This document shows, piece after piece, positions 1-64,000 of a stretch of DNA of 64,000 nt; position 1 is the stretch's first letter; every line of letters begins with the position of its first letter. This stretch comes from Endomychus coccineus (taxonomy: Eukaryota; Arthropoda; Insecta; Coleoptera; Endomychidae). The position numbers were made by a program, and so were the translations under genes. Below the pieces are notes generated by a model, which saw only the letters and a program-made list of their open reading frames with translations, was not told where the DNA came from and ran no database searches. The DNA lies in NCBI GenBank assembly GCA_958510875.1, contig OY294067.1, positions 152,983,962-153,047,961 on the forward strand, written 5' to 3'.

Positions 1-123
1 TAACGATCTCCCCACTCATCTTAGCGATTGAAACCATATTTTATAATAAACAAGCAGCCTACCTTATGGAATTTATAAAAGTAGTACACAGGAGGGTTGT
101 TCTCTGGTGGTGCTGGAAGGCTC

Positions 124-447
124 TCAACTCCTTGGGGAGGACAATTCGCAGAATTCAATTTTTGAGCAGGATTTTCCTGTCCCGATGGCTTCTTCCCCCC
201 GATATATTAGGGCTGTGTTGCGTCCTTTATTAATGTCCTCGATAAGGGGGAGAAGCGCTGGTGTTACTCTCTTGGGCAGGAAAACCGATCGCTCTCCTTC
301 CAATTCTGCTAATACAGCCTCCCCAAATTTTGTGTTCACAATTTTTAAATTGAAAATCAAATGGGGCACATTCAATTCTAGCTCGACAATTTTCGTATGT
401 GTTGCCCTCTGCAAGAGAGAGATACGGTTCAATTTGGAGAAATCCAT
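124..447 (-). CDS. Small 107-residue protein, oligonucleotide-binding-like, family unknown
   Basis: I do not recognise a named family. The ORF reads MDFSKLNRISLLQRA at its start, then alternates hydrophobic and polar stretches (VELELNVPHLIFNLKIVN, TKFGEAVLAELEG) and a short FLPKRVT motif. This is a beta-rich pattern like that of small single-stranded DNA-binding OB-fold proteins, but that is an inference from composition only. It is intact from ATG to stop. It is oriented opposite to the seven-exon gene that begins about 830 bp away and in the same direction as the two minus-strand genes at 2.6-3.8 kb, so it may belong with them to one mobile or virus-derived unit. It could also be a lone repetitive ORF. 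Confidence 0.45.
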   Translation of the reverse strand: MDFSKLNRISLLQRATHTKIVELELNVPHLIFNLKIVNTKFGEAVLAELEGERSVFLPKRVTPALLPLIEDINKGRNTALIYRGEEAIGTGKSCSKIEFCELSSPRS

Positions 448-1280
448 TTTTTTACTTTACTTTATTTTTTAAAAATCTAAAACAAATCGATGGAAGTTAG
501 AAGTGTGAAGAATTATTTTTGTGTGCTGAATTTACCCCACCAAATTGAATAAAAGAAAATTAATAAATACCCCCAAATTATTATTATTATTAATATTTAC
601 TCAATCAAATTGTATAAAAGAAGATCAATAAATACCCTCAAATTATTATTAATATTTATCCAATCAAATTGTATAAAAGAAGATCAATAAATACTTTCAA
701 AAAGTTAAAGTTTAGCTTGCACAGTTTCAATAAAAGCAAAATAAATATTCAGTACATAGAAATTAACTCTACATATGAATATAATATTCAAGTCAATAAA
801 TAAACTCACCTTGATTTAGCACTCACAAAAACACGTCTAGTTAGTTCAAAAGCTAGTAGAATAATGATTTGATAATGGTATGAGGTATGCGCACATCGAG
901 TTTTATAGGAACTTCTTATCACTTTCCTGCTATGTTCACACGCTATGCAGGATGTCTCGTCGCCTGTTATATCATGATAATAAGTTAACTGTAACCACAA
1001 GCGGGAAGTCTCGGTCGACTGTTATATTCATATTGGTAAGATCTTCAACCACAAGCAGGATGTTAAATTCTATTTGAAATCGCGTGATTGCAGAAACTTC
1101 CTTGAAATATTTATCCGCATACATTTTTTTTTTTCCTCAACCGATAACAACTTTATCATTTTTCCTGGGAACTAATTTAATTCGTAGGACTTTGGTTTAA
1201 ATATTGTGTGTGTATAAAACTCTAGGTACTTCATAGGGAAAAAATAGTATTCTTGTAAGTGTTGTGTGACATAGTGAAAA
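448..1280. other. Divergent intergenic region with two short tandem repeats
   Basis: The stretch separates the minus-strand small ORF from the plus-strand spliced gene. From about 540 to 697 three imperfect copies of a roughly 60-bp AT-rich unit occur, each containing AAATTGTATAAAAGAAGATC or a close variant. From about 945 to 1065 a roughly 57-bp unit with GCAGGATGT and CTGTTATAT recurs imperfectly. No convincing ORF was seen. Confidence 0.5.
1213..1219 (+). promoter_or_regulatory. TATA box of the seven-exon gene
   Basis: TATAAAA lies 62 bp upstream of the ATG at 1281. A start site about 25-30 bp downstream would fall near TTCATAG at 1230-1236, leaving a 5' leader of about 45 bp. The position is what an RNA polymerase II promoter needs, but no transcript data support it here. 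Confidence 0.5.
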
Positions 1281-2472
<1,192 letters not shown>

Positions 2473-2519
2473 ATTTAAGTGCTTATATGTTATTTTTAAA
2501 AATTGCATATATTTCAAAA

Positions 2520-2525
2520 AATAAA
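2520..2525 (+). terminator. Polyadenylation signal of the seven-exon gene
   Basis: AATAAA lies 48 bp after the stop codon. It is followed by an AT-rich stretch with TGTATGTATCTG, a plausible GU-rich downstream element. Confidence 0.5.
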
Positions 2526-2600
2526 AGTTAAAAGTTAAATGTATGTATCTGACTGATTTCCCTATCTCCTATTCAAAATCAAACAATAGCGATACTTTCA

Positions 2601-3234
2601 TTATTTATTATTAATATGTTTCTTTACATTTTTAATGAGGATTTTCAGTAGTAAAACTGATAATGCACTAAGATTGAAACATTGCATAGCATAGATTTCA
2701 TTTTCTTTCTGTGGTGGTGGTGGCTGGGGTGGTGTTGGTTGGGCTTCAGATACATTGCTTTGACAATTGATTGCTGCTGCCGTCACAGGTGTTGGGACTA
2801 TAGTTTGATGCCAATTCACCACGTCCCCCTCACTACCATCATGGAATAATAACTTGAGTTTATAGTTGAAATTTGCTAACATCCTTTTAGGAATAACGTA
2901 TGAGAATACCTCTAGGTGATTTTCATTAACTAGTTGATGGTCCATAGGCTGCCATTCAGTTCGATTACATTCCTTCTCTGCGAAGGTATCCTTGTTGGGA
3001 CATATATAAATTCGATTCACTTGAAGTGGTACGTTTGTATATAGGACTCCATTCAATATTGCTGTTAGGATTATGAAATTTGATTTCAGCACACCCATCT
3101 CCTCCACTTATACTCAAATTGCCTAGTTGATTTATAGTTAACTTTTTATCTTCGTAAAATTTTATGTCTTTATTCAGTGCTACTAATTTCATATGGAATT
3201 CAAGCAGTTTACGTGCGTATTCTTCCGAAGGCAT
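2601..3234 (-). pseudogene. Frameshifted unknown gene downstream of the exonuclease-like gene
   Basis: No recognised family. The frame opens with MPSEEYARKLLEFHMKLVAL at 3234 and reads through to about 3000-3100. From there coding-like sequence continues in another frame (CPNKDTFAEKECNRTEWQPM, then KRMLANFNYKLKLLFHDGSE) to a stop at 2601. The switch lies somewhere in 3000-3105 and looks like a one-base indel; a very small intron is the alternative. The C-terminal part has a proline run (PTPPQPPPPQK). The start lies only 11 bp after the stop of the exonuclease-like gene on the same strand, so the two are tightly paired. The end converges on the seven-exon gene, whose poly(A) signal is about 75 bp away. 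Confidence 0.5.
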
Positions 3235-3245
3235 ATCAATACTGG

Positions 3246-3794
3246 TTAGTTCGGTGGAGTGTCACCCATACCCATTTTTTGAAACCCTCGTAATATATCC
3301 AGATGGGCATCTTCCTTTGTAACATATTCAAACAATTTCCAGCTGTTTACACTGCAGCACATAGAATTATTGGTGGTAGAGTGATGAAGGCAGATATATC
3401 TACAGTTTTCTCGAACAAATTGTGGGCAGCTGCCTTTCAAATTCAACACTTTCACCTGACGATCTAACCCCAATTTTTTGAGAATCTTCACTATGAATTT
3501 GGCTTTGCCCACACCACTAACGTATATGATGCTATTTGGATCAATATTTTCCTTGAAAATTTCCTCCATCCGAATATAGTCCTGATATCCAGAGTTGTAT
3601 GGAATCCCATGATACTTTTCGCAAAACATCACTTGCTTCATTTGATTTTCTGAGAGTTCACTTAGCGGTGTGGGTGGCTTGAATAGAAAATATTTTTCTA
3701 GCTTCTTTTCGCAATCCAACAAAGCCAGTTCCTTAACTATCATTGTATGGTGAGAGATTTGGAAGCTCTGAATGTCAACCACCACCGACTTCAT
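3246..3794 (-). CDS. Repetitive insect gene with exonuclease-like features, 182 residues
   Basis: The protein starts MKSVVVDIQSF and continues with a KELALLDCEKK strand, the motif CEKYHGIPYNSGYQ, an IIYVSGVGKAKFIVKIL segment and a C-terminal CRYICLHHS with a second cysteine pair. The order (V-D-I near the start, a central strand-helix with a 'xIYVxG' pattern, a late His/Cys block) resembles the RNase H-like DnaQ 3'-5' exonuclease fold, but the full acidic set is not evident, so activity is uncertain. The frame is intact. A clear paralogue starts at 63,786 on the other strand; the first about 70 residues agree at roughly two thirds of positions by eye. I remember similar proteins as multi-copy hypotheticals in insect genomes. 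Upstream lie short repeats and a 25-bp minisatellite. Confidence 0.55.
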   Translation of the reverse strand: MKSVVVDIQSFQISHHTMIVKELALLDCEKKLEKYFLFKPPTPLSELSENQMKQVMFCEKYHGIPYNSGYQDYIRMEEIFKENIDPNSIIYVSGVGKAKFIVKILKKLGLDRQVKVLNLKGSCPQFVRENCRYICLHHSTTNNSMCCSVNSWKLFEYVTKEDAHLDILRGFQKMGMGDTPPN

Positions 3795-4173
3795 CTTGAA
3801 CTAAACTGTTTCGTCGATAATTAAGACCCTCAATGCAAACTAGAACGAGTCTGATGAGTCGCACGAGCCGCACGAAACGTTGCAACCGATGATTCCCGAG
3901 TGTAGATCTTTCATTTTGCTAAAGTTGCATGAGACGCATGAGTCGGGTGAGTCGAACTGGTAGCGCCACCTCTACGAAACAGTCTGTACCTTCGATGGCA
4001 TCTGTCATGGTGACATCTTCATGAAGCAGCCTGTACCTTTTGGACCGAAGGTATAGACTGCTTCCCAGAGGTGGCGGAGCCCCCTCCAGGAAGCAGTCTA
4101 TACCTTAGGTCTGTCATGACAGCTGTCACTTGGTGGTGACATCTCTACGAAGCAATCTGTACCTTAGGTCTGT
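3795..4173. repeat. Upstream region with repeated AAGCAGTCTGTACCTT motif
   Basis: This GC-richer stretch lies upstream of the minus-strand exonuclease-like gene. The motif (A)AGCARTCTGTACCTT occurs about five times between 3975 and 4166, once inverted near 4048-4063, interleaved with TGTCATGACAGCTGTCA palindrome-like sequence. It grades into the regular 25-bp array and may be its degenerate edge or a regulatory region. Confidence 0.55.
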
Positions 4174-4698
4174 CATGACAGCTGGTTCTTATGCTCGCCA
4201 TGACAGCTGGTCCTTATGGTCGCCATGACAGCTGGTCCTTATGGTCGCCATGACAGCTGGTCCTTATGGTCGCCATGACAGCTGGTCCTTATGGTCGCCA
4301 TGACAGCTGGTCCTTATGGTCGCCATGACAGCTGGTCCTTATGGTCGCCATGACAGCTGGTCCTTATGATCGCCATGACAGCTGGTCCTTATGGCCGCCA
4401 TGACAGCTGGTCCTTATGGTCGCCATGACAGCTGGTCCTTATGGTCGCCATGACAGCTGGTCCTTATGGTCGCCATGACAGCTGGTCCTTATGGTCGCCA
4501 TGACAGCTGGTCCTTATGGTCGCCATGACAGCTGGTCCTTATGGTCGCCATGACAGCTGGTCCTTATGATCGCCATGACAGCTGGTCCTTATGATCGCCA
4601 TGACAGCTGGTCCTTATGGCCGCCATGACAGCTGGTCCTTATGGTCGCCATGACAGCTGGACCTTATGGTCGCCATGACAGTTGGACCTTAGGGCCGC
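4174..4698. repeat. 25-bp minisatellite, 21 copies
   Basis: The unit starts CATGACAGCTGGTCCTTATG and finishes GTCGC. The array is 525 bp, exactly 21 periods with no spacer and few substitutions (GATCGC, GGCCGC, GTTGGACC variants at the edges). Each unit contains CAGCTG, an E-box type hexamer. It is not a CRISPR array because there are no unique spacers. Confidence 0.95.
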
Positions 4699-5571
4699 CA
4701 TGCTGCCATGTGTTAGTCACGTGACTCTGTACATGTGACACACTTTTTGAACACACCCTGTATACTCTTTACAAATAAAATAAAATCCTTATCACCTACA
4801 TCCTTTCAAAACTGATAAGGACGAGCTCATGCACCGGATGCACATCGACAGCTAGACCGGATATCCTGGTCCCGTGCTAGCCCAGTTCATCTACTTGCCA
4901 ATGCAGTAATTACTCGCAAATTGGTGTCACCAATGATGGAAAGCTTTATATTGTCACCTGGCCTGAGACGACTCGGATCACTCCGGGTCCGTCAAAGTGA
5001 ACGAAGGGACGAGGCTAAGCCGAATCCCAGCTTATCACCTGCCTTGGATGTATTTTTGGGCATATCCAAGGGAGGATAGAAACTCCTCAGAACCAAGATG
5101 CAACCACCTATCTACCAGGATGGACATAAACGGTAAACCGCTTGCCGGCGCAGGAACTCCCGGCAGGGATAGTGCTGGCAAGGGGCACGGGGACCTTGAC
5201 TTAAGCGCTAGGGTTGCATGGTGAGGTCACACTCACACGTCCCAACTCTCATGGTATGTTGCGCCCCAAAGGGATGCAAGGCTGAGGGAAGCTCAGTGAA
5301 TAGCGACCACGGTCGTATATACAGGTCTTTTTTTTTTTCAGTAGAGGGGAAATCCTTTACGGACATCCGGTGTTTGGATCAATCACACCGGATAGTGTAG
5401 GACTGACTAGCACCGCTGTGTGTGCAATGGCAGCAAATGCCGTACGTGCAATGCAGTGTATCTACCTACTAAAACCCCTCCTAACTTCACCAGTGGCATC
5501 ACGGACCCGCTCTCGCATTACAACATGATGACACCTGTCTTTCTTGACCTCAACATATGTTCTTTGGCATG
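4699..5571. other. GC-rich segment resembling a non-LTR 5' region, no intact gene
   Basis: Base composition changes sharply to GC-rich at about 4820-5570. The text near 5110-5200 (start ATGGACATAAACGG, then GGAACTCCCGGCAGGGATAG) is typical of the leader of R1-type retrotransposons but no long frame supports a protein. ACCACGGTCGTATATACAGG at 5309-5328 matches the terminal motif of the MITE family found at 8436, 8768 and 11298. ACACACCCTGTATACTC near 4753 is a terminal motif often seen in insect elements. Confidence 0.35.
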
Positions 5572-8225
5572 TCACCCATGACCCCTTAGTTTTTGTTCTC
5601 GTTCGTCATTTTCTTTCTGTTTTATAACTTCTTTAATCATATCGTTGACTACTATCCATTTGTCCTCTGCTTTCAGCATTTCATGGATAGGGTTATCTGG
5701 TCTGAGTTCATGTCCAATTACTTCCATTACCCTTTCCCTTGTTTGTCGCCATCTTATGCATCTAAACAACGTGTGTTCTGCATCATCCGGAACTTCTTTA
5801 CAGTATAAACACGTGTCATCCTCTGCCTTTCCTATTCTTTTAAGATATGTTTGGAAGCTTCCGTGAGACGTTAATGCCTGAGTGAGATGATATCCAATTT
5901 CACCATAAGTCCGGCTGTACCATGCGGTTATATCTGGCAGCAACTTGTGCAGCCATATATCTTTGTTACTGGCCAGCCATCTTTCTTGCCACTTTGCAAT
6001 GGTATTTTTGTGGATCTCCTTTTTTTCCTGTTTCGTCTTACCTATTGCTACTTTTCATTCCTCTACCATTAGATCGAATGGAATAATTCTGGCAAGTACT
6101 CTTGCACTTTCCGTTGATATCGTTCTATATCCTCTAGTTATCCTCAGCAACATCTTCCTTTGGACCTTTCCTGCTATAGTCCTATATTTTGCGACCTGCA
6201 TCACCTTTCCCCATACCGGTGCAGCATATAACATGATTGAATGTACCACTGATGCTAGGATACGTCTTTTGGATTCGCTACTGCCTCCTACTCTAGGCAT
6301 TATTCTATTAAGTGCCGTTGCGGCGGTACTTGCTTTATCGGCCACATATGTGAAGTGCTTTCTAAAATTTGCGCTCTTGTCTATTACAATCCCTAGGTAT
6401 TTTATGCTTTCCTTTGGGTATATCACCCGTCCTTGCAATAAAAATTCCACTTGTCCATGCCTTTTCTTCCCTATGGCTAGCATTGCCTCTGTTTTGTCTG
6501 GTGCTAGTTTTAACTTCATACACTTCATCCAATGACTGATCTCAGATAATGCATCATTGGCTATTCTCATGAGCTGTTTCTCGGTCCTAGCTATTACAAT
6601 GAGTATGAGGTCGTCCGCATATGCCACCGTAAAAGCTCCATCCATAAGGCTAAGTCTTGAGACACCGTCATATAATATGTTCCATAGCAATGGGCCTAGT
6701 ACGTTGCCCTATGGTACACCTACACTGATTTTCATTTCTTCCCCTTGATCTATTTCCAGGCTTCTTTCGCTAAATTAACTTCGTATAACACGAAGAAGGT
6801 ACGGCGGCAGCCGTCTCTTTTCCAATTCTTCCATTATGAGGTTCCATCCGGCCGTATTAAATGCGTTCTCCACATCTATGGTTATAAGAGCACACAGCTT
6901 CCTAGTTTTGAGGGTCTTTTTAAGCTCTCTTTCAATAATGCTACATACTTCGTCTATGGCATGAACTGTTGATTTCCCTTTTATGAACCCATATTGTCTC
7001 TCCGATAACTCACACTGATTTTTTGTTAGTTCTTCTCTTATTCTTGTTGCTATTAGATGTTCCATCAACTTTCCTAGAGTGTCAAGCAAACATATTGGTC
7101 TAAATGATGAGGCATCATTGTTTGCTTTTTTTGGTTTCTTTAATAGAACCAGCTTAGCTTTCTTCCATGGCTTTGGGAAAATTCCTTGTTTCAAAGTTTC
7201 ATTGAGGGTATCAAGCAAGAATTCGGGATGTTGTTCCATCATTAGTTTAACAACTTCCGGTGGAATGCCATCCGGTCCAGCTGATTTGCCATTTTTCATC
7301 TTCCTGCCTGCTTCCTGTAGTTCTTCTAGGGTGAACGTTTTTACTAGGCCATCACTATACTCTCCCCTGACTTTATTCTCTGTGTGGGCCGGGAATAATG
7401 CTCTTGCAATCTCCTTTTTTGTTTCCGTTTCCATCTTCACAGGGCTTTGAAATTTCTTCATTACTTTTATAGCCTAGTCCCCAAATATCATTTTCAACGT
7501 CTTCACAAGTTTTTGCCCAATGTAGTTCCTTAGCCTTATAGATTGTATCTCTCAATTCTTTCTTAGTCTCCTTGTATTGAGCTTGAGTTATAAAAACAGC
7601 CTCTAGATCTCCTCTTTTCCTTTCTCTTTGCATCTTCCGTCTTTGATTAAATCATTCGTTTCTTTGCTGCGCTATCTCTTGTGACCAACTCCTGCTCTGC
7701 CTTTTCTTTTACAGCCTTTTTTTGGCATAGCTATGTGGCATATACACACATTATTATATCGACGCAAATCTCAATCGATTTATTTTCATTGTCATCAAGG
7801 TTTACTATAATAGCTTCTAAGAATTTTTCTGAATTAAATTTGCTGGTTGCCCATCCCTTATTTGTACTTTCTTTCTTCTGTGGATTTCCATTAGTTGTAT
7901 CAATTACCATATGTATATATCGGTGGTCACTCAGTGATTCTTGCTGAAGTACTTCCCATGTTATAACAAATCTGGCTAGGTTTTCTGATGTGCATGTTAT
8001 GTCTATATAAGACGTTGACTTACCTCTCATGAACGTTGGACTGTCTCCTCTATTTTGAACTATTAGATTATTGGCTGCCATCCACTGTGAAAACATGTTA
8101 CCTCTATCATCTTCTCTTCTTGAACCCCATTCAGGAGACTTCGCGTTAAAATCACCGGTCAATATTACATACTTTTTTGCATTGCGTATATTAACTTCCA
8201 GTTCATCTAAGAGTTTTTTCGAAGG
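5572..8225 (-). pseudogene. R1-clade non-LTR retrotransposon, 5'-truncated and decayed
   Basis: Reading on the minus strand, the order is: end of an APE-type endonuclease (8162-7731) with GDFNAKS, SYIDITCTS and SDHRYI; a linker (7633-7373); reverse transcriptase (7461-6775 and 6690-6055) with KSAGPDGIPPEVV, FRPICLLDTLGK, the catalytic YADDLILIV and KYLGIVID; and a C-terminal zinc-type motif CLYCKEVPDDAEHTLFRCIRW ending at 5572. That final motif, with endonuclease and no RNase H, is characteristic of the R1 clade. At least three frameshifts or stops separate the pieces, and the first half of the endonuclease and all of ORF1 are missing beyond about 8225. It cannot make active proteins. Confidence 0.88.
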
Positions 8226-8435
8226 GTCTCAATCCAACATCTCGTTAAAACGATTTCTTTCCGGAATCACAAGCATCCACTTTTTTCGCATTTCCGCATC
8301 TTTCGGCACTTTAAAAACAGAAGTTTTTTGCTTTACACTTTTTTACCCCGTTTTGCATTTCGGCACAATGCACGGTTTCGTCATTTTTTTCTAAAAACGC
8401 CGGTATTCCTTGTGTTTACAAGTCAACAATGACAG
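8226..8435. other. Unassigned sequence between retroelement and MITE cluster
   Basis: No ORF, repeat or motif I can name. It may be the remaining flank into which the R1-type element inserted. Confidence 0.4.
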
Positions 8436-8588
8436 TTGCCAGAGAACACGGTCATATACGTGTCAGAGATCATTCTTCGACTACTGCGCCACCCGTTGGT
8501 ACTACGCGGCAGTTGACGCTTAGCGGACTCACTTCTCACATAGGAAACAGCCTCGAGTTCCCAGACCTGTATGTACGACCGTGGTCAG
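8436..8588. mobile_element. MITE family X, copy 1
   Basis: About 150 bp bounded by ACACGGTCATATACGTGTCAG on the left and, inverted, TGTATGTACGACCGTGGT on the right. The interior GTTGACGCTTAGCGGACTC is shared with copy 2 (8768-8952) and, in reverse complement, with the fragment at 11,298-11,402. The imperfect terminal inverted repeats and the three copies in this window make a non-autonomous DNA transposon the best reading. The superfamily was not determined. Confidence 0.6.
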
Positions 8589-8621
8589 GATTAAGCGCCA
8601 TATAGTTCAAACCATAGTCAT

Positions 8622-8754
8622 AAGTATAAAGGTCTGTTGGAGCCTCCCCACCATCGTTTCTCGCGCTAGGTGACGTCACCTAGCTCCTCCAATCACAGCC
8701 TTGCTCTCGAATTTTAAAAAGAGTAGAAGGGGGCTCCAACAGACCTTTATACTT
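8622..8754. mobile_element. Palindromic MITE Y with 23-bp perfect inverted ends
   Basis: 8622-8644 and 8732-8754 are perfect reverse complements over 23 bp (AAGTATAAAGGTCTGTTGGA plus GCC). At the centre 8665-8684 is a perfect 20-bp palindrome, GCTAGGTGACGTCACCTAGC, which contains the cAMP-response consensus TGACGTCA; a CCAAT follows at about 8689. The element sits between two copies of MITE family X. Confidence 0.7.
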
Positions 8755-8767
8755 TGTCTGTGGTTCA

Positions 8768-8952
8768 AACACGGTCGTATACGTGCCAGAGAACCATAGA
8801 TAACTCTACTACCGAGAGTTATCTATGCAGAGAACATTCCTCGACTCATGCGCCACCACCCTTTTGGTACTACGCAACAGATGACGCTTAGCGGACTCAC
8901 TTCTCACATAGGAAACAGCCTCGAGTTTCCAGAGTATATACGACTGTGGTAG
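8768..8952. mobile_element. MITE family X, copy 2, with small hairpin insert
   Basis: Starts AACACGGTCGTATACGTGCC and ends GTATATACGACTGTGGT. It matches copy 1 in ACTACGC..ACGCTTAGCGGACTC and TCACATAGGAAACAGCC. It contains an extra hairpin at 8804-8836, CATAGATAACTCT with its exact reverse complement after a 7-nt loop, absent from copy 1. Confidence 0.6.
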
Positions 8953-9149
8953 CGACCGGGGGACACCCCGTTGTATTAACCTTACCCATGCAAGAGGGGA
9001 CCATTATTTCCCTTGCCACTCGTGGGACCAAAATGTATACCAAAAAACCAACAGGGGGACTTTTCGCAGAACCCCAGTCTCCAGCCAGGGTAGAGAAACT
9101 CCAAGAGTCAAGGGAACACATGTTTTACATGAATAGGAAATGTAATACT

Positions 9150-9354
9150 GATTATTTTTCCGTCCCAAATATCGACCAATAGAATTGCACCATTCGACGT
9201 CACGTGGTACAACCTACATGGAATTATACTGAATATTTTTTGAATATTTTCTCTGGTAGTTGCTATATATAAAACTTCAAACTGACAGGTTGAATTCTGT
9301 CCACCATCGATAAAAAAGTCAAAGGAAATGTTCATTTGGGACGGAAAAATAATC
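9150..9354. mobile_element. MITE family A, copy 1 (21-bp terminal inverted repeats)
   Basis: The left end GATTATTTTTCCGTCCCAAA and its reverse complement at the right end agree over 21 bp. The 205-bp element has no coding capacity. It is immediately followed, after 5 bp, by MITE family B, and the whole A+B pair is repeated at 9562-10086. Confidence 0.7.
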
Positions 9355-9359
9355 CTCCG

Positions 9360-9555
9360 AATACCACACGAGCTTCAAAATTATCTGGCATTTCCCTCAA
9401 GGTTCCCTGCAAACAAATAAAGTCGTCAAGTTTTTCAGGAAAAATCACTCGCGCTTTGCGCTCGTGATTTTGTAACCTGAAAAACTTGACTCCTTCATTT
9501 GTTTGCAACGAACCTATCGGGAAATATCCGATAATTTTGAAGCTCTTGTGGTATT
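9360..9555. mobile_element. MITE family B, copy 1 (fold-back with nested hairpin)
   Basis: Ends AATACCACACGAGCTTCAAA and its near-complement TTTGAAGCTCTTGTGGTATT form about 35-bp inverted repeats. Inside, GTCAAGTTTTTCAGG pairs with CCTGAAAAACTTGAC, and inside that AAATCACTCGCGC pairs with GCGCTCGTGATTT. The transcript would fold into three stacked hairpins. Confidence 0.7.
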
Positions 9556-9561
9556 ATATAT

Positions 9562-9885
9562 GATTATTTTTCCGTCCCAAATATCAACCAATAGAATTGC
9601 ACCATTCGACGTCACGTGGTACAACCTACATGGAATTATACTGAATATTTTTTGAATATTTTCTCTGGTAGTAGATATATATAAAAAACAAAACATGATC
9701 CAGTCAAATTAACCACACTTCAAACTGACAGGTTGAATTCTGTCCACCATCGATAAAAAAGTCAAAGGAAATGTTCATTTGGGACGGCCAGTCAAATTAA
9801 CCACACTTCAAACTGACAGGTTGAATTCTGTCCACCATCGATAAAAAAGTCAAAGGAAATGTTCATTTGGGACGGAAAAATAATC
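9562..9885. mobile_element. MITE family A, copy 2, with internal 88-bp tandem duplication
   Basis: Same ends as copy 1, but an 88-bp segment starting CCAGTCAAATTAACCACACT at 9700 repeats at 9788, lengthening the element to 324 bp. Otherwise it is near-identical to copy 1, so the duplication of the A+B pair is recent. Confidence 0.7.
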
Positions 9886-9890
9886 CTCCG

Positions 9891-10086
9891 AATACCACAC
9901 GAGCTTCAAAATTATCTGGCATTTCCCTCAAGGTTCCCTGCAAACAAATAAAGTCGTCAAGTTTTTCAGGAAAAATCACTCGCGCTTCGCGCTCGTGATT
10001 TTTTAACCTGAAAAACTTGACTCCTTCATTTATTTGCAACGAACCTATCGGGAAATACCCGATAATTTTGAAGCTCTTGTGGTATT
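9891..10086. mobile_element. MITE family B, copy 2
   Basis: Near-identical to the copy at 9360-9555, including the nested hairpin (here CGCGCTTCGCGCTCG in the loop region) and the same terminal inverted repeats. Confidence 0.7.
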
Positions 10087-11297
10087 ATATATGAATACTT
10101 CATTATAGGACATATCACACATATACTGAATGTAATTTGTTTATACCACTATTAATTTTTGAGTAGCATCCTAATGAAACCATATATCATACGACTTAAA
10201 TGAAATAGCACAATTGGAAAGAATGAGAACTGACCATACTAATAGATTTTTATTTTATTTTGATTACATTGTTGCGTAAGAAGGATTCAGCCTCTCTGTA
10301 CAATGATGAAACATTCAGTATACATTCTTGAAGATGAACTTTCATTTGATCTATACACAATAGGGCACCAGCGAGAAAATATACTAAGAAAAAATAAAAA
10401 CTGAGACTTCTCATACATCTAAAATTTTTATTTTAATTTCTTTTTTCGTAAAAACCCAATCAGCCTCTATTAATAATGTCAAAAAGGTGCACATAATATT
10501 ATTTAGTATGAGAAACACTGTTTAATAATTTTGACATAGATATATTATCGTGTCATGGTATGCATAACTCAATTAAATCTTTTGAAGCATACACATTGTT
10601 ATCTGCTAGATTGAAAGAAAAAAATATATTAATAAAGTATCACACGAAATAGTGTACATAAAATGTTTGGCGCATAAACAATACAAGGAAATAATATAGG
10701 TATGGAATTTGACATAAATATTTCTTGTTTTGTTTTTCCTTTAAATGTTTCATATTAAACTGAATAGAAAAAAAAAGAAAATCGATTTTTATTTGTTATC
10801 TAGAATTTTCAGAAGTTACAGTAAATAAAGAAAAACTAACGAAAAAACATAAAAGTATGAAACACTCCTTGTAAAATCTTACTCAAATTTACTTCTACTG
10901 CAATTAAGATAGATTGGAAAGTGACAATCGAGAAATACTGTATCTTCGGCTGAAATAATTCAAAAACATCATTGGATGCTCCTTATCAAATGAAATACAA
11001 TCAATTTTCCGTTGCAAAGTTCTTGTCAATGGCAGAGATAACTTTTGAGTACAACTCTTGTGAGTGAGCAAATTTTAAGTGCAAGGGTATCTTTCTTTAT
11101 TCATGAGATGAATCAGTTATTGTTGTTAATGCTTGTGTTGTTGATGCTTGTAATTGATCAATCATTTTTTGAGAGCTCCAACAATAGTTCTTCCTTGATT
11201 TCCTGTTTCCAGTTTTCTAATTTTATTTTTTAATGTTGTTTCTTTCTGTTCGATTTTTCAAGTTTTGGAATGAATTGCATTGCTTTCTGAAGCTGCA
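10087..11297. other. AT-rich DNA, nothing recognised
   Basis: Strongly AT-rich with no ORF showing protein-like composition and no repeat shared with the rest of the window that I could see. Confidence 0.5.
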
Positions 11298-11402
11298 TTT
11301 CGACCACGGTCGTACATACAGGTCTGGAAACTCGGGGCTGTTTCCTATGTGTGTTCCTATTTTCCGCTAAGCGTCGACTGTCGCGTAGTACCAAAAGTCG
11401 TC
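11298..11402 (-). mobile_element. MITE family X, truncated copy 3 in reverse orientation
   Basis: GACCACGGTCGTACATACAG at about 11,298, then GGGCTGTTTCCTATGTG and CCGCTAAGCGTCGACTG, is the reverse complement of copy 1 read from its right end. The match stops near 11,400 where hAT-type MITE sequence begins, so one element truncated the other. Confidence 0.6.
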
Positions 11403-11958
11403 AAAATTTCGGGCCACTCAGACCGCTGTATATTACAAGTATGGCCGTATGGAATGTGCTGTTGCCGGGTTAGTTGTTCTGTGTGCCGGATTGAGATTTG
11501 TAATTATTATAAAATCATAGCATTATTTATTGGTTATATTAGAAGCAATACTGTTGAGATGTCGTTTTCTCTGAAAAATATTCCATAATTTATGGTAACC
11601 TGGAATATACAATCGAATTATAGAATATTCAAATTTTTAAATATAGAACTATTCCATTCTATTGCATCATTTGTTCAGAAGGCGACAACGCCGCGCACCT
11701 TTTATGAATGGGGACTTTGTTCTGTACTACGCAAATTAACAGCTTCCGTATTTCTCGTAGCTATTTCGAAGCGGTGTTGCCTTACAAGTGGTACCAAGTT
11801 TTAAATCATAGTTACAGCGTTGCCAATAAGGAGTAATTATGACTCGACCACAAAGAAGTCCGTTGGTTTTCTGTGTCATACTTCATGTAATCATTGCGAC
11901 AAGTCAAATAGAGTTTTATGAACGAGATGTTTGGTCTCCTTAGGATAATAGGTCTATG
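11403..11958. mobile_element. hAT-type MITE, left-truncated copy
   Basis: This is the reverse-complement relative of the complete element at 53,347-53,970. It shares TTTCGGGCCACTCAGACCGC at its start and the terminal TTAGGATAATAGGTCTATG at 11,940-11,958. The other terminus is missing, replaced by MITE X sequence. Both copies keep similar short open frames, but these follow from the high DNA identity of two recent copies and are not evidence of a protein. Confidence 0.7.
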
Positions 11959-12297
11959 GGCACCTCCCACCGATACAGTAATATTATGCTCCTAGCGGCG
12001 ACTTGATATACCGAGTTCAATTTTCAACCTGCTAGGTGGAAAAGTGCTGTGTTTGTTCTACAACTTACGAAAAAGAATCGGAGCTGTCATTTCATATGTA
12101 AGTTCAGAGGCGTATCTTCCATCAGAGACAAGACTTCCATGTTGTAAACAGTAAATAACAAATATTTATGAGATTATAAGACACTTTATATAGTAAATAT
12201 ATTACATATATTATATGAAAATGTCATACATTATATAATATGACAATTTGTTTACATATTTTAGACATAAAAAACTGTAATATAATGCTATATTATA
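11959..12297. other. No gene recognised
   Basis: AT-rich towards the right. Nothing identifiable before the long palindrome at 12,298. Confidence 0.5.
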
Positions 12298-12493
12298 TTT
12301 AACGAAATAATAAATAAAACTACTTTGTTTTACTACCACTGATATTTAATATAGTCGTTACTATAGTTTCAACACTAAACGTGTCATCTTCAGACGAAAA
12401 ATGATGACACGTTTAGTGTTGAAACTATAGTAACGACTATATTAAATATCAGTGGTAGTAAAACAAAGTAGTTTTATTTATTATTTCGTTAAA
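12298..12493. mobile_element. Perfect 91-bp-arm palindrome made of a Penelope-type tail
   Basis: 12,298-12,388 and 12,403-12,493 are exact reverse complements (91 bp each) with a 14-nt spacer. The arm ends TTTAACGAAATAATAAATAA at the outside. The same sequence occurs singly at 27,820-27,926 and 31,515-31,652, where it is inserted in satellite DNA, so it is a mobile unit. The left arm plus spacer contains a hammerhead ribozyme motif, described separately. The identity of the arms implies a recent origin. Confidence 0.8.
12355..12397 (-). ncRNA. Hammerhead ribozyme motif (Penelope-type), copy with complete core
   Basis: On the minus strand: stem I strand UCGU, core CUGAAGA (consensus CUGANGA), an unpaired U, stem II GACAC/GUGUU with loop GUUUA, GAAA, a 3-bp stem III (A-U, C-G, U-A) with loop AU, cleavage triplet GUA, and stem I strand ACGA. 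It has the same sequence as the motif at 31,551-31,593. Penelope-like retroelements are known to carry hammerheads with this very short stem III. Cleavage would be after the A of GUA. Confidence 0.6.
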
Positions 12494-12563
12494 ATGATAA
12501 ACTATCACAAAGTAACGGCTTCCACAATTGAATTTTTGCTATATTATATCTTACTTATTGTAG

Positions 12564-13414
12564 GGTTCCAAAAGACTGTATTCGAATTGACCGGTGGTCT
12601 AGATCTCTTCATCTTGTTCTTCAGCATGGTATGGATAGTCTGCTCGAAACAGTTCTTACCAGAAGACATTAAAATAAACAAATCTGGGATTAAACACATT
12701 TTAAAAACTGCTATCATCCATTTAATAGAATCGCCAGAAGAAAATGTGATTGGGTAAATATGTTTATTTAACTGATGTTACTCCTACGTTTTTTGACTGT
12801 TTAAATTGTGTGCAGGTCCTCAGGTCATAATTCCACAACAGTATCTGCTTCATTTAACGAAAGCTCTACTTTGACAGCATCTGACGAGCAGGGTTTCGAA
12901 AAATTATCGTTTTTAAAACCAGAAAATCTAAGATCCCCAACAAAGTAAGTCAAACTTTACCAAAATGGTTTGAAATATTACATTCTTTGTTTATAGGCAT
13001 TCAAAGAAAGCTTATCTTTGTTTAATGATACTTCAGAATTAGGGAAGCCAATGTATAAAATAAGAACAGGTTCAAGATCGACCATAACTCTTTCATCGTC
13101 TGATACTGATACATATTTGCATAGACCACGGTGTTCTCAAAGTATTAACTTTAAAGTTATTCAAGTATATGAGCGTTACTGTGCATATTTATTTTATAAT
13201 AATCAACTGATGTTTGTTCAGAAAAATACGAAAACTAAGATATATGGGGGACTGTCATACAAGTGGTATGGAATGTGCAGGAAAAGCTAAACAAATTTGG
13301 AAAATTGCTAAGAAAACAGTCCATAATCAAAGACGGAAAATAAAAAACCTGAGTGAAAGTCATAGAAAGTTAAAAGCTCGAATTCTTAGCTTAAAGGGAT
13401 TGTTGAAGTCTTGA
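12564..13414 (+). pseudogene. THAP-domain / P-element-like gene remnant with intron traces
   Basis: Pieces in several frames recall a THAP transposase. VPKDCIRIDRWSRSL (12,566 on) fits the middle of a THAP zinc finger, VWIVCSKQFLPEDIKINKSG its second half with Cys and the following Phe, and the region 13,214-13,414 (LRYMGDCHTSGMECAGKAKQ, then a basic coiled coil KIKNLSESHRKLKARILSLK) fits the leucine-rich segment that follows. Candidate introns lie at 12,756-12,815, 12,944-12,996 and 13,161-13,218, all GT-AG. The first Cys pair of the THAP domain is missing, there is a frameshift inside the domain, and exon phases do not all agree, so the gene is dead. No transposase catalytic region follows. 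Confidence 0.6.
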
Positions 13415-13415
13415 C

Positions 13416-13496
13416 AAATTATGAAATAACGGTTTTAGTAACAAAGAAAAACTAACACATGTTTTTCTTGTTACTAAAACCATTCTTTCATAATTC
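13416..13496. repeat. 37-bp imperfect hairpin
   Basis: AAATTATGAAATAACGGTTT at 13,416 onward pairs with the segment ending at 13,496 over about 36 bp with three differences and an 8-nt spacer. It directly overlaps the stop of the THAP remnant, so it could be a small MITE or a terminator-like structure of that gene. Confidence 0.6.
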
Positions 13497-16059
13497 GTAG
13501 TTCATTATTGTTTTACAACTGAAATAAATAGGTATGAAATTTGTAGGTTATTGATAATGTCAGTGCGACAGTGACATAATTATTTCAAACGTAAAGTAAG
13601 ACACACGTTTTAGATTCCACAACCACCCTTGACCAAGATAATTTTTGATATCCCGGTAGAAGATTATGCTGCAAATGTGTTTAATTCTGAATAATATTGC
13701 ATAATACCGTTCAATACGGATATTTATTTCCGTGGATATCGTACTGCATTACGTTTTGTACGTCAGTATAATACCTGTAAAGTGTGAAACTAATTATACC
13801 GTAAAATTCCGAACCCTGATCGAAATGTTGACTTATTTCTATTAATTTAGAAACAACAACTTGTTCTGGTGTGCTATTTTCTAGACACCTTAGAATAATA
13901 TCTTGGAAGATGTGGCTGGAGAATAGTAACTGTTGAATAAGTTGCCAAATTGTAAGAATATTTTTCAACTTGATAAACAGTTTTTGAAAGATAAAGTTTC
14001 GATTTATTTGATCTCAAGTGAAATTTTATTAATATTTTCGGACAATGGAACGTGCATTATGAATTCTTTTGAATTTATTTATTCTCGATATCAACCGTTT
14101 TGTTTATTAGCTGCGTTAATTATACTTATCAATAATTGTGTTTAATTTTAAAATGCATGTTTTTGTTATTACATTTAACTCATGAAATTTTTTTAAATAT
14201 TCAAATCAATTAATTTATCTAAAACTGATACGCCGCTGCTTATTGTTTGTAAACATTCTCTATCCTTTTTATTAGACAAGAGTATGTCTTCCACGCAAAA
14301 TTATCAGGCTATGCCACTTCTTCCTTCATATTTCTATGTACGTAACGAATACATAGGCTATTATAGGGGCTTTACTCCTCTATACTATATGATCTCTATG
14401 GTTCAGTCTCTCATGACCATAGACGTAATGTCAAATACCATTTGTTTATGATTGAGGGACTGACACACTCGAGCTGTTCCGAAGATTCCAGTACCGTCCG
14501 ACCGCCCGTCTCCGTAATGAAAAGTCAAAATAAATAATATGGCTACGCTAGTAATAATAGTTGTGTATCTGTATACTTGTGACTTCGTTGTTGTGGATTC
14601 ATAATAATATAGTGCCTTTTTCATTGAATACTGTGTTTGGCCCAAAGAATTACGAGAGTGTCATTAGTGTAGAAGTTGTTTGAAAGTGCAAAGTTGTAGT
14701 CTGCAAATATATTGAGGCCAATATGTGAATTTGACGACCCTGGATTTCACTAATCTCTTTATAGAAAGTACGTATGAATTTACAAACCCATATTGTTACA
14801 GATATGTTTGTTACTTTCAAAAGCATCAATATTATTTAATGTTAATGATATTTTACTTTCCTTCTGGAACTGTCTCCTGAACTTAATTGTCATTATTAAA
14901 GTCTTAGGGCACACCCAGCAAAACAGATTAAGTTTGTAGTTTCATGAATAAAGTTATAATTCTTAATTTATCATTTGTATGAAATCATATTAATTTGACA
15001 ACCCCTATTAGCAAAGTAATCATGCACTTGTATTAATTTTGAGGGTAATTCAAAAAAACAATCTTAGGTTATAATGATTGGCTGAACCAAATTATCTGAA
15101 AGTAAGGATGTATTTGATATCATAAGTTCTACCATATAAGTAGGTACAAATAAAACAGTTTTGAAATTGCTCATTTGATTTATGGTTTTAGGTTATCAGA
15201 GAACCAATATTTACCTATCATAGATTTATATTATCTGGCTAATTAAGTTATATGTGATTGAAACGATTGTAATATTTTATACCACATAAAAAGTTTCACA
15301 CATTGTCAGCACCATAAAAGAGTACCCAAACCCAAAATTCATTCAAACTGTAGTATTTTGAGTTTCGCCACAAAATATGTTCAGTTTCAGATTTGAAATA
15401 TCAAAGTTGATGTTTGATTTAATTCCTCCGGAATTTTTTCCAGAGTTTCTTATTAGTATTATTCTACTTTATACTGATACGATTTTTAATTACCGCTATA
15501 TTTATTCCAATATATACATCTTGATTCGGGTAAGTAGTTATAGAGAGTTAGAATGAAAAACTGGCTTTTGATGTATTAGCTCGAGTTAAAGGTTTGATCT
15601 CGTTGTTAATAGAGTAAGAGGTAGGTATTTTGGGTCAATTTCGCACAATTCAAATGTATTTCTAATGATATTCATTTTTGTGGGAGGTAACTTAATATTA
15701 TGAACCATTCATTATGGTTCTTCTGAATTATTCACCCATAAAAATGGAGCTGAAAGAAATAATAAGTCGATCGCATGAAAATGTGACACGGCTATTAGTC
15801 GCAATTTTGTAGGTGCCGATACCAAATTTGTCACACGTTTTAAATCCGCAGAAGAGTGCCTTCTATATTTGGCGGCGAATATCGGATGATAAATAACCCA
15901 ACTACTTACTTTAGTAAACCTCAAAAATTTAGTTGGATTACAGGACGTCGTGAAAATAACAGGGACATTACTAGCAAAACCACGCAGAGAGCAGATACGT
16001 TTCAGCAGAACTTAATGAAGAATATCATAATTAACAATTATGAACAATTTTCTGCTGCG
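13497..16059. other. AT-rich region with one unexplained minus-strand ORF
   Basis: No identified gene. An 85-codon minus-strand frame at 13,711-13,968 reads IFQDIILRCLENSTPEQVVV, which has protein-like composition, but I cannot assign it. 14,400-14,780 is slightly GC-richer and has a possible splice donor GTACGT after ATAGAAA near 14,767, which might mark an untranslated exon. The remainder is featureless. Confidence 0.35.
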
Positions 16060-27819: not shown

Positions 27820-27926
27820 ATTTTAACGAAATAATAAGTAAAACTACTTTGTTTTACTATCACTGATATTTAATATAGTCGTTACTATAGTTTCAACACT
27901 AAACGTGTCATCTTCCGACGAAAAAT
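27820..27926 (-). mobile_element. Penelope-type tail fragment with broken hammerhead
   Basis: TTTTAACGAAATAATAAGTA to CATCTTCCGACGAAAAA matches the left arm of the palindrome at 12,298. On the minus strand the core reads CGGAAGA in place of CUGAAGA (27,911-27,917), so a universally conserved U is lost and the ribozyme should be inactive. It sits exactly where the satellite returns from reversed to forward orientation. Confidence 0.7.
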
Positions 27927-61732: not shown

Positions 61733-62097
61733 TTACATACGTTTAGCAGCATCGATAGGCAACACACACAACCTTGACATTGCGTGTTTGAACACCTTGT
61801 TGGCTACCTTTATAGTCACAACCCGAATAACACCATCAGGACCGGGATGCAAAGTTTGAACTCGTCCAAGCTGCCATTTTAATGGGGGCAGGTTGTCTTC
61901 CTTGATTAACACCAGTACACCAGTACTAAGTAGAGTACCTGAGTTTCTTTTACACTTCATTCTGGTTTGTAATTCGGACCCGTATTCTTTACTCCAACGA
62001 GTCCAAAAATGCTGGGTTAGTTGTTGAATTCGTTGAAATTTGGAGAGACGACCTTCTTTAATGTCCATCACATTGGGATCCGGAATTGCTGATAGTA
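61733..62097 (-). pseudogene. BEL/Pao LTR retrotransposon, C-terminal end of polyprotein
   Basis: Minus strand DPNVMDIKEGRLSKFQRIQQ, LTQHFWTRWSKEYGSELQTR, LLSTGVLVLIKEDNLPPLKW and GRVQTLHPGPDGVIRVVTIK correspond to the DUF5641-type domain that follows integrase in BEL/Pao polyproteins. The frame is open to a stop at 61,733. Integrase and everything before it are missing to the right of 62,097, and I found no LTR. Confidence 0.85.
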
Positions 62098-62182
62098 GAT
62101 ACAGTCCGCTACCTTTGGACCAGGAAGTGTGACGTCACTTCCGGTCTGTGCTCCGATTATCAGGTCTCCACTTCCGGTCTGC

Positions 62183-62395
62183 GCTGGCGATGTATGTTAT
62201 CGGGTAGATAACGTTATCGGCTAGATAGCGTTATCAGTTCTGGCATCCAGTGTGTGTAATTAGTGTTATCGGGTAGATAACGTTATCGGGTAGATAGCGT
62301 TATCAGTGATTGTGAGTCACTCATGCTGGCGATGTGTGTAATTAGTGTTATCGGGTAGATAACGTTATCGGCTAGATAGCGTGATTGCGAGTTTG
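62183..62395. repeat. Three roughly 70-80-bp units rich in GTTATCGGGTAGATAAC
   Basis: GTTATCGGGTAGATAAC begins at about 62,196, 62,265 and 62,347, each time followed by GTTATCGGSTAGATAGCG and linked by TGTGTGTAATTAGT. The motif is itself an interrupted palindrome (GTTATC/GATAAC). A consensus TGACGTCA lies just upstream near 62,131. The cluster sits about 730 bp upstream of the intact gene at 63,124. Confidence 0.75.
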
Positions 62396-63123
62396 GTCTA
62401 CGTATAAATAGAAATGCTTAGTTTGAAATATTAATCTTATCAATGAGGTCATCAACAAGTCGTAACTTGTGTGTGGTAGATAATAGAGCCATTGTATTCA
62501 ATTTTAAACGGAAACAGATAACACTTTGTTTTGCAACCAACTGATTGGTTGATATTTTATCTACGAGAAATGCTTAGTTTGAAATATTAATCTTTTCAAC
62601 AACAAAATGAAAACGTAAACTGTTTCTTGTGCTGATATTGATAACTCAGCAAATTATCGTGGGAATGTGTCACGTAGGCTGCTGACGATTGGCATTCGGT
62701 GTTTGTAATTATTGTTTGAATGTATATACAGGGGGTTTGTAAAGAGTATGTTATGTTGTATATACAGGTTGTTTGTAAGAAAGGTACTAGACACGTGGTG
62801 TCATGGCAGCTATCACGTGAGGTGGTCAACGAGGTATTATGGCGGTTGTGAATCGATCATAACGTCTACGACGTGTACATCAAATGAAAAAAAATGGTAT
62901 TCTTTGGTGAGAAAGATTGAAAGGGATCCGAACCCACGTCATTTTTATCTGAAAATGTTCATGATTTTATTATTTTACATGTATACTTACCAGTTCGATC
63001 GACCTCTTATCTCTCACCCGCAAGAATACCATTTAGTTTTGATTGTATATTTTAGGTTGAAAAAGTCAATAGCGCAGAGGGTGTGTGTGACTGCTTCAAC
63101 TAAATCGAACTCAGTTCGTGATA
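62396..63123. other. Region upstream of the right-hand gene pair
   Basis: GAAATGCTTAGTTTGAAATATTAATCTT occurs in two copies (about 62,412 and 62,569). GTATATACAGG..GTTTGTAA occurs twice at 62,722-62,780. TCAGTTCG at 63,112 matches the arthropod initiator TCAGT, 12 bp before the ATG, which would leave a very short leader. No TATA box is evident at the right distance. Confidence 0.4.
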
Positions 63124-63732
63124 ATGTCTCCTCGATTATACAACAGTTTTATTCATAGTGTGCTTACCACCGTGTACGATGCGAAGAAATTCGTAATAAG
63201 CGCATGTCCGCCGAATATGATGGAAATCCTCGAAGAATTACAATTACCATCCAAAAATTGGATAATCGCTGGAGAATTCATAACTTTCCTGGTGGGGGCC
63301 TCGACCGATTGGGCGTATGCTGATATTTTCTATTTCGGAGGAGATTTCGATCCACCTCCAGAAGATTGGAAGATATTCGATATGAATATAGAAGGTCAGT
63401 TCAAATATAAACATAGAAGAATGGGAAAAATCATATTGCATCAAATTTCGGGTATCGTTCCGAAACCAGGATCGTATATACTTGATTGTTTTAGAGTGCT
63501 ACATGATATTGATGATGATTTTTATCGGATCGCACTTCTACCGTACCGATGTGAGATAATGGACATGCGCAGCATCCGAAGAGATACTTCAAATTCTTAC
63601 ACCTTTAAGATGTTTCCACTGTTTTCTGAGATAGGAGGGGAGGTCGACTATAGAATAAGTCCATCATCACTACAAATTTTGTGCTTCGACGTACTCTTTC
63701 GAAATTTCGATAACATCAAAGAATTATGTTAA
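63124..63732 (+). CDS. Intact 202-residue protein, nucleotidyltransferase-like hint
   Basis: I do not recognise a named family. The start ATG at 63,124 is preferred to an in-frame GTG 6 bp upstream. The segment NWIIAGEFITFLVGASTDWA followed by YADIFYFGGDF recalls the 'aGG.....llG.....DID.F' pattern of the polymerase-beta nucleotidyltransferase fold, but the expected acidic pair is not clearly present, so this is weak. Other parts: KHRRMGKIILHQISGIV, ILDCFRVLHDIDDDFYRIAL and a C-terminal LQILCFDVLFRNFDNIKELC. No signal peptide or membrane segment. The gene is followed after 53 bp by a paralogue of the exonuclease-like gene at 3246-3794, in the same direction, so the two may work in one unit. 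Confidence 0.6.
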   Translation: MSPRLYNSFIHSVLTTVYDAKKFVISACPPNMMEILEELQLPSKNWIIAGEFITFLVGASTDWAYADIFYFGGDFDPPPEDWKIFDMNIEGQFKYKHRRMGKIILHQISGIVPKPGSYILDCFRVLHDIDDDFYRIALLPYRCEIMDMRSIRRDTSNSYTFKMFPLFSEIGGEVDYRISPSSLQILCFDVLFRNFDNIKELC

Positions 63733-63785
63733 TGATCTGCGCATGTGCAACTAGATATTTGGATAGTTTATCATTCTAGTTTGAA

Positions 63786-64000
63786 ATGTCGTCTATAGTG
63801 GTTGATATTCAAAGTTTCCCGATTTCTGCAAACGTATATAAAATCAAGGAACTCTCTTTGTTGGACTGTGATAAAAGGTTGGAGAAATATTTTCTATTCA
63901 AACCTCCAAAATCGATGGATCAACTATCTGAGAGGCAAATGAAGAAAATATTTCATTGTGAAAAATATCATGGGATTCCATGGAACTCTGGCTATCAGGA
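63786..64000 (+). CDS. Exonuclease-like repetitive insect gene, second copy, cut by window end
   Basis: Reads MSSIVVDIQSFPISANVYKI, KELSLLDCDKRLEKYFLFKP and CEKYHGIPWNSGYQ, aligning without gaps to the start of the gene at 3246-3794. The visible 71 codons are open and the remainder lies beyond position 64,000. Its orientation is opposite to the left copy. Conservation of the protein while the surrounding DNA differs suggests that at least one copy evolved under selection before landing here. Confidence 0.65.
   Translation, partial: MSSIVVDIQSFPISANVYKIKELSLLDCDKRLEKYFLFKPPKSMDQLSERQMKKIFHCEKYHGIPWNSGYQ

What the first reader, a model, noticed from the sequence alone, without database searches (positions are those of the whole stretch)
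63124..64000. Same unfamiliar gene family at both ends of the window, in clusters of intact unknown genes
The gene at 3246-3794 and the one starting at 63,786 are clear homologues (shared VVDIQSF, KYFLFKPP, CEKYHGIP and NSGYQ). Each sits beside other genes I cannot name: 2601-3234, 1281-2472 and 124-447 on the left, 63,124-63,732 on the right. In a window where recognisable transposon genes are nearly all broken, four of these unknown genes are intact. That is what recently integrated virus-derived DNA or an undescribed large mobile element would look like. A replication-type kit (exonuclease-like, oligonucleotide-binding-like, nucleotidyltransferase-like) is suggested by weak fold hints only.
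Basis: partly seen in the sequence, partly recalled or inferred. Interest (0 to 1): 0.75.

Follow-up and report, generated by a model that had tools for sequence, protein, structure and literature searches.

The report
Polintons with matched variable ends
The unfamiliar genes belong to two integrated virus-like Polinton (Maverick) elements, a known kind present here in many near-identical copies, whose two ends carry a short tag that differs from copy to copy but was the same on both ends of every copy for which both ends were found.

Summary
In detail: 3246-3794(-) and 63786-(+) are homologues (48/71 aa identical). They are accessory genes of two Polinton/Maverick (adintovirus-like) elements that run off the window edges. 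The left element spans window -14607..4895 (19.5 kb), with inverted terminal repeats, a 6-bp target duplication, rve integrase, a frame with family-B DNA polymerase motifs, and a capsid gene. The right one probably starts at 62094 (motif match only) and holds double-jelly-roll capsid, ATPase and phospholipase-A2-like genes. The family is abundant and young: 150 copies scored at >=90% identity, of 2925 candidates. So it is virus-derived, but not an undescribed kind. 'Intact' fails twice: this copy's polymerase frame has an in-frame stop, and 2601-3234 is two overlapping frames. Unexpected: between AGTAGATG and CAGG at the tips sits a 19-nt block with 35 distinct sequences in 45 A-type copies, differing even between copies identical over 1.6 kb, yet the same on both ends of 25 of 25 elements with both ends found. 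How it is generated is unresolved.

The parts
1..4895 (.). Right-hand 4.9 kb of the left Polinton; the whole element spans window -14607..4895 (C1:152969354-152988856, 19.5 kb)
   Evidence: both termini, TSD; inverted pair of termini, 100% match
4008..4895 (.). Terminal inverted repeat of the left element (outer 236 bp identical at both ends, array of different length, then 155 bp 99% identical)
4162..4702 (.). 25-bp tandem array inside the terminal repeat (21.6 copies by TRF; by one search pattern 19 units here and 13 at the other end)
4869..4887 (-). Hypervariable 19-nt terminal block (nt 9-27 from the outer end)
4896..4901 (.). 6-bp target-site duplication TGCCAA (also present outside the other terminus)
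3246..3794 (-). Accessory gene 'exo' (182 aa; family with VDIQ-F motif), the gene of the finding
2965..3234 (-). Short overlapping reading frame X_N (89 codons), found again in other copies
2601..3107 (-). Overlapping reading frame X_C (up to 168 aa); hydrophobic ends and possible N-glycosylation sites suggest a membrane protein (by eye, inference)
1281..2472 (+). Probable multi-exon accessory gene (exons inferred by eye; a putative intron holds an AC/ATT microsatellite)
124..447 (-). 107-aa accessory gene next to the polymerase; 99% identical in L033, L036, L037, 77% in L043, L044, 49% in L041; no hit in L032
1..37 (-). Edge of the polymerase reading frame, which continues outside the window (L031:4261-8037) and is split by one in-frame stop
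62094..64000 (+). Left end of the right Polinton (terminus by motif only; continues beyond the window, L032; its other end was not seen)
62102..62120 (+). Terminal block of the right element, layout AGTAGAT-[block]-CAGG at the same spacing (motif match)
63124..63732 (+). Accessory gene R1 (202 aa); homologue beside the integrase in the left element (L031:2651-3274)
63786..64000 (+). Right copy of the exo family gene (continues to window 64289)

Best explanation
Both window ends are pieces of Polinton/Maverick elements, i.e. endogenous adintovirus-like DNA viruses (the confidence below is for this). Shown: 19.5-kb unit of the left element, inverted terminal repeats starting AGTAGATG, 6-bp target duplications, rve integrase, a frame with PolB exonuclease and polymerase motifs, capsid gene (DJR profile on the right homologue), packaging-type ATPase and phospholipase-A2-like gene on the right element, many near-identical copies. 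Inferred from the known class: protein-primed copying from the two ends and integrase-driven insertion. The 'unfamiliar gene family' is an accessory family; both elements hold two diverged members (exo and exo2: at opposite ends in the left element, near the same end in the right one), with dN/dS well below 1, role unknown. At each tip lies a 19-nt block that differs between copies but is the same at both tips of one copy. I infer (about 0.4) that one end serves as the template for the other during replication, which keeps the two tips alike, while short tracts of the block are exchanged between elements that replicate together.
For: Homology. Genes: rve E=1.6e-16, left; DJR 1e-67, Pox_A32-type ATPase 6.9e-10, PLA2 1.3e-12, right; left and right capsid 82% aa identical; DFE, AHN..GYD, YTDTDS; integrase D/D/E positions by eye. 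Termini and TSD: 14 of 15 (these include the 2); 9 of 10. Inverted pair 19,503 bp apart for this copy. Copies: 150 scored of 2925 candidates, 129 scored of 7275. Selection: dN/dS exo 0.14-0.19, exo2 0.10, R1 0.25, capsid 0.055. Block: 35 distinct of 45 readable, 50 tried; same on both ends 15 of 15 and 10 of 10; four copies with no difference in 1.6 kb differ at 2-10 of 19 block sites; four-gamete violations 79 of 105 site pairs; 11 of 36 word pairs associated at p<0.05, strongest among the outermost words, none of the 8 pairs with word 26-27.
Against: Pfam gave no DNA_pol_B hit for the polymerase frame, only Endonuclease_7 above its cut-off; PDB sequences and NCBIfam gave nothing useful. The protease hit is below its cut-off. 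A 2-kb stretch of the left element was not read and no element was read whole. The right element's terminus rests on a motif. Six of 21 copies showed no other end in the stretch fetched. The template/exchange idea does not explain why variation is confined to 19 nt, why changes are mostly transversions (3:14 against 110:70), or why array lengths differ between the two ends of a copy.
Confidence: 0.95

Rival explanations
1. Undescribed large mobile element, not a Polinton.
For: The exo gene matched nothing significant in Pfam, PHROGs, NCBIfam, PDB sequences, the protein collection or viral contigs; R1 and 124-447 nothing in Pfam, PHROGs or NCBIfam, R1 nothing significant in PDB sequences; X_C nothing significant in Pfam or PHROGs. 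R1, X and 124-447 were not searched in the protein collection or viral contigs.
Against: The same terminus-bounded unit carries integrase, PolB motifs, capsid homologue and AGT-type ends with 6-bp TSDs; the collections searched seem poor in animal sequences (even the integrase found no relative in viral contigs).
Confidence: 0.03
2. The terminal block is a recognition code: a DNA-binding protein of the element (or of the host) reads it, and diversity is favoured so that each lineage is copied, inserted or silenced separately.
For: A few alternatives per position, GG/CC, CA/TT and AC/CT words that travel together, several near-balanced frequencies, transversion excess, sharing of words between subfamilies; identity of both ends.
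Against: The elements of L003-L007, with four different blocks, have 99-100% identical integrase, and L003/L004/L006/L007 are identical over 1.6 kb, so no co-varying partner was seen (other genes not tested for this); among B-type copies 13 of 16 readable ones share one block.
Confidence: 0.2
3. The block is ordinary neutral variation of an unconstrained spacer.
For: Flanks AGTAGATG and CAGGATATCC are conserved, so the spacer could be free to drift.
Against: Up to 10 of 19 differences at zero background differences, transversion excess and identical ends.
Confidence: 0.04
4. Host genes captured or duplicated by chance near broken transposons.
For: None found.
Against: Co-occurrence, termini and TSDs in dispersed copies.
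Confidence: 0.01

Closest known systems
Polinton/Maverick elements (vertebrate Mavericks, PMC8097293; capsid paper PMC4028283)
   Same: Size class, PolB, rve integrase, ATPase, DJR capsid, accessory ORFs at the flanks, TIRs of 46-1447 bp, AGT-type end motif, 6-bp TSD (abstract/opening and passages seen)
   Different: At least 150 copies scored, above the vertebrate mean of 22 and median of 8, though 172-287 are reported for a few vertebrates; end-matched hypervariable block just inside the end motif; the section read reports information content falling inward but describes no such block
Adintoviruses (definition passage in PMC11071296; Drosophila-associated ones in PMC8363768)
   Same: PolB, integrase, capsid, ATPase gene set; a chromodomain-like integrase tail is visible by eye
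   Different: 19.5 kb against 13.3-14.6 kb for the three Drosophila-associated ones; OTU domain and chromodomain not confirmed by a profile; no tree was made
Adenovirus inverted terminal repeats (recalled, no call)
   Same: Short terminal direct repeat and ends kept alike, attributed to end copying
   Different: There the stretch just inside the terminal repeat is conserved as the polymerase-binding core; here it is the hypervariable part

Membership tests
Polinton/Maverick | Unit of about 12-25 kb bounded by terminal inverted repeats | tested here: met
   Left element: 19.5 kb, inverted pair of termini; TIR parts compared. Right element: other end not seen
Polinton/Maverick | 6-bp target-site duplication | tested here: met
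   14 of 15 long copies with both ends found, window copy included; 9 of 10 short ones
Polinton/Maverick | rve-type integrase | tested here: met
   PF00665 E=1.6e-16; D, D, E positions by eye
[quoted passage not shown]
   Exonuclease and polymerase motifs present but no Pfam PolB hit and no PDB sequence hit; terminal-protein domain not tested
Polinton/Maverick | Double-jelly-roll major capsid protein | tested here: met
   PF21738 E=1e-67 on the right element; left homologue 82% aa identical
Polinton/Maverick | Packaging ATPase | tested here: met
   PF04665 E=6.9e-10, above cut-off, right element; the part of the left element where it may lie was not read
Polinton/Maverick | Ulp1/adenain-type protease | tested here: inconclusive
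   Peptidase_C48 E=0.01, below cut-off, right element
Polinton/Maverick | Minor capsid (penton) protein | tested here: inconclusive
   232-235 aa gene beside the capsid in both elements, 86% identical; no profile hit above cut-off for the right one; fold not tested
Adintovirus | PolB with N-terminal OTU-like domain | not tested
   A DEYCFAW stretch is present; no structure prediction available
Adintovirus | Integrase with C-terminal chromodomain | tested here: inconclusive
   Chromodomain-like tail seen by eye; Pfam listed only rve at E<=0.1
DnaQ-like exonuclease (for the exo family) | DxE catalytic motif (recalled) and profile match | tested here: not met
   Invariant motif is D-x-Q in all four members aligned; no RNase_T-type hit

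The most novel reading that the evidence does not exclude
The 19-nt terminal block is a combinatorial, end-matched code: a limited set of words per position is reassorted between co-replicating Polintons and copied onto both ends, and it acts as a self-recognition tag for replication or insertion, used also by shorter 12-13 kb elements of different gene content that bear the same ends.
Probability: 0.2. Interest if true: 0.85.

Novelty: new variant of a known kind. Interest (0 to 1): 0.6.

Why it matters
A genome with many young, near-identical Polintons gives a direct record of how these virus-like elements copy their ends. If the block is generated or reassorted during replication, it is a natural tag that would let replication and insertion lineages be followed, and it would point to an end-handling step that I did not meet in the Polinton texts I saw (PMC4028283 abstract and opening, PMC8097293 section 7 and passages, PMC11071308 and PMC11071296 passages). 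The accessory family (exo/exo2) evolves under constraint and has no name in the libraries searched.

Tried and rejected
Rejected: single host genes; undescribed element type; active DnaQ-type exonuclease (D-x-Q); terminal block as part of the target site (TSDs lie outside it); block by drift; simple flip of the block (by eye only, no call).

On variable Polinton ends the paper searches listed nothing that I recognised as such; only titles and abstract starts of most were seen, so this is no proof of absence. Copy counts are lower bounds (150 of 2925, 129 of 7275, 40 of 1340 candidates scored). Whether the right element's own relatives have variable blocks could not be tested: the genome search with its end did not complete. 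Whether the short elements lack polymerase or integrase is unknown (2.4 kb of one, plus 53-nt ends of ten, read).

Full report
What was claimed. The homology is real: 48 of 71 residues identical, E = 9e-36 for that one comparison. The DNA around the two genes showed no other long similarity.

Copies. With the left protein, 150 matches were scored out of 2925 first-look candidates; all are at least 90% identical, and by my count of the rows 140 have no internal stop. With the integrase found outside the window, 129 were scored out of 7275 candidates, all at least 96% identical, 110 without a stop by my count. These are lower bounds.

The element. Upstream of the window the same unit holds an integrase frame, an R1 homologue and a large polymerase frame, and further out an exo2 gene, a capsid gene and a penton-like gene. 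On the right, beyond 64000, follow the rest of exo, the X gene, exo2, capsid, a penton-like gene, a weak protease, a phospholipase-A2-like gene and an ATPase. Pfam supports rve integrase on the left (1.6e-16) and double jelly roll (1e-67), phospholipase A2 (1.3e-12) and Pox_A32-type ATPase (6.9e-10) on the right; the protease hit is below cut-off and the polymerase got no PolB profile hit. The polymerase does show the exonuclease motifs DFE and AHN..GYD and the polymerase motif YTDTDS (the motif names are recalled). A 2-kb stretch of the left element was left unread.

Ends. The left element runs from -14607 to 4895 in window coordinates, with TGCCAA on both sides; the DNA search found the matching inverted pair 19,503 bp apart. 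Its outer 236 bp are identical at both ends, the 25-bp array differs in length (19 against 13 units by one pattern), and the next 155 bp are 99% identical. Of 21 copies tried at the far end, 15 gave a terminus in the stretch fetched; 14 of these 15 have a perfect 6-bp duplication. For vertebrate Mavericks the text seen gives 6-bp duplications, AGT-repeat end motifs, 12.7-24.6 kb, TIRs of 46-1447 bp and accessory regions flanking the core (PMC8097293). This is therefore a Polinton/Maverick, adintovirus-like by gene set; adintovirus membership proper was not shown (OTU domain and chromodomain unconfirmed). The right element's end at 62094 is a motif match (AGTAGAT and CAGG at the same spacing) with only weak similarity around it (E 0.02 to 0.4), and its far end was not seen.

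What the unfamiliar genes are. They are accessory genes. Both elements carry two diverged family members, exo and exo2 (left exo and right exo2 are 33% identical). Nei-Gojobori dN/dS is 0.14-0.19 for exo, 0.10 for exo2, 0.25 for R1, 0.055 for the capsid (these are single pairs, and among these genes dS is above 1 and near saturation for all but the exo A/B pair). So they are maintained, but their role is unknown; the invariant D-x-Q where a DnaQ exonuclease has D-x-E (recalled) speaks against a plain exonuclease. The two frames at 2601-3234 are both conserved in subfamily B and, with one stop in the shorter frame, in the right element. The polymerase frame is uninterrupted in 5 of 9 A-type stretches (one reaching the end of its stretch) and 4 of 5 B-type stretches; the window's own copy has one in-frame stop. 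These stretches were picked by their exo match, so the fractions are not genome-wide.

The unexpected part. Each readable A-type end shows AGTAGATG, then 19 nt, then CAGG. Among 50 A-type copies tried, 45 could be read and show 35 distinct blocks. In the first 30 copies 17 of 19 columns vary, while a 1.6-kb piece nearby has 180 variable columns of 1740. L003, L004, L006 and L007 have no differences in that piece but 2 to 10 of 19 in the block. Variable columns are transitions:transversions 3:14 in the block against 110:70 in the piece (Fisher P = 6e-4), and C/G changes are 6 of 17 against 6 of 180. Sites 13-14, 20-21 and 26-27 travel as words. 79 of 105 testable site pairs show all four combinations. 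Of 36 word pairs 11 are associated at p<0.05, most strongly the outermost words with one another, and none of the 8 pairs with word 26-27 (copies are related, so these p values are rough). Block distance rises only weakly with sequence distance (Spearman 0.27, pairs not independent).

Both ends agree. The block is identical at both ends in 15 of 15 long copies with both ends found (13 different blocks among them by my count) and in 10 of 10 shorter elements. Two random copies among the first 30 share a block with probability 0.02. The shorter ones were picked by similarity to the window's own end (3 different blocks among 10), so they say nothing about diversity. Results that cut the other way: in subfamily B, 16 of 25 loci tried were readable and 13 of these 16 have the same block (my count over nt 9-27), so the block is not remade at every insertion. 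A-type L020 and B-type L087/L088 share their first 23 nt exactly. The right element shows the same layout with its own block.

Shorter elements with the same ends. Of the 40 scored termini (1340 candidates), 22 form 11 pairs 11.8-13.2 kb apart, 10 form 5 pairs of 19.1-20.0 kb, and 8 are unpaired in the list (my count). In one shorter element, read in two 1.2-kb stretches, a piece 82% identical to the right element starts where that element's exo gene ends and covers the X gene; no exo was seen in the stretch beyond an 11-residue match, and an ATPase homologue lies near the other end. So unlike interiors use nearly the same ends. In the same sense L041 and L043 have identical exo genes (0 of 543 differences), yet their 124-447 homologues are 49% and 77% identical to the window's: the elements are mosaics.

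Mechanism. Shown: class, copies, ends, duplications, matched variable blocks. Inferred from the class: protein-primed copying and integrase insertion. The terminal AGTAG repeat resembles the short terminal repeats from which protein-primed polymerases jump back (recalled). My working idea is that one end templates the other during replication, keeping tips alike, with short tracts exchanged between co-replicating elements. It does not explain the tight limit of 19 nt, the transversion excess, or the unequal arrays. A recognition code is the bolder reading (probability 0.2); the one partner checked, the integrase, does not co-vary with the block in the elements of L003-L007.

Papers: PMC4028283 (abstract and opening), PMC8097293 (passages and section 7), PMC8363768, PMC11071296, PMC11071308 and PMC2836005 (passages only); others only as search listings.

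Noticed in passing
G000 C2:80184029-80195841 and ten further pairs: A class of 11.8-13.2 kb elements shares the A-type ends; the one looked into has other gene content. Possible satellites of the long Polintons.
   Followed up: partly
L041 against L043: Identical exo genes (0 of 543 differences) but very different 124-447 homologues (49% against 77% to the window's), a sign of recombination between elements.
   Followed up: partly
window 25301-31346 and 31654-32651; 35564-38114 and 44304-45406: Two satellite families with units of about 145-148 bp (e.g. 41 copies at 25301); by eye the consensus units suggest that each is also present in the opposite orientation nearby.
   Followed up: no
window 61733-62071: DUF5641 fragment (E=1.3e-32), probably of a BEL/Pao retroelement (recalled link), directly beside the right Polinton's presumed end at 62094: the Polinton seems inserted into it.
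   Followed up: no
window 40335-42281, 39639-40328, 6055-7461, 7731-8162: Reverse transcriptase and endonuclease frames of non-LTR type; that at 40335 is open for 648 codons.
   Followed up: no
window 38117-38605: Frame with a weak Ulp1-protease match (E=1.7e-4, just above cut-off) and PHD/C1-like zinc-finger matches below cut-off.
   Followed up: no
window 2163-2372: Long AC and ATT microsatellites inside a putative intron of the 1281-2472 gene; in the copies compared the similarity breaks or shifts there, so its length probably varies.
   Followed up: no
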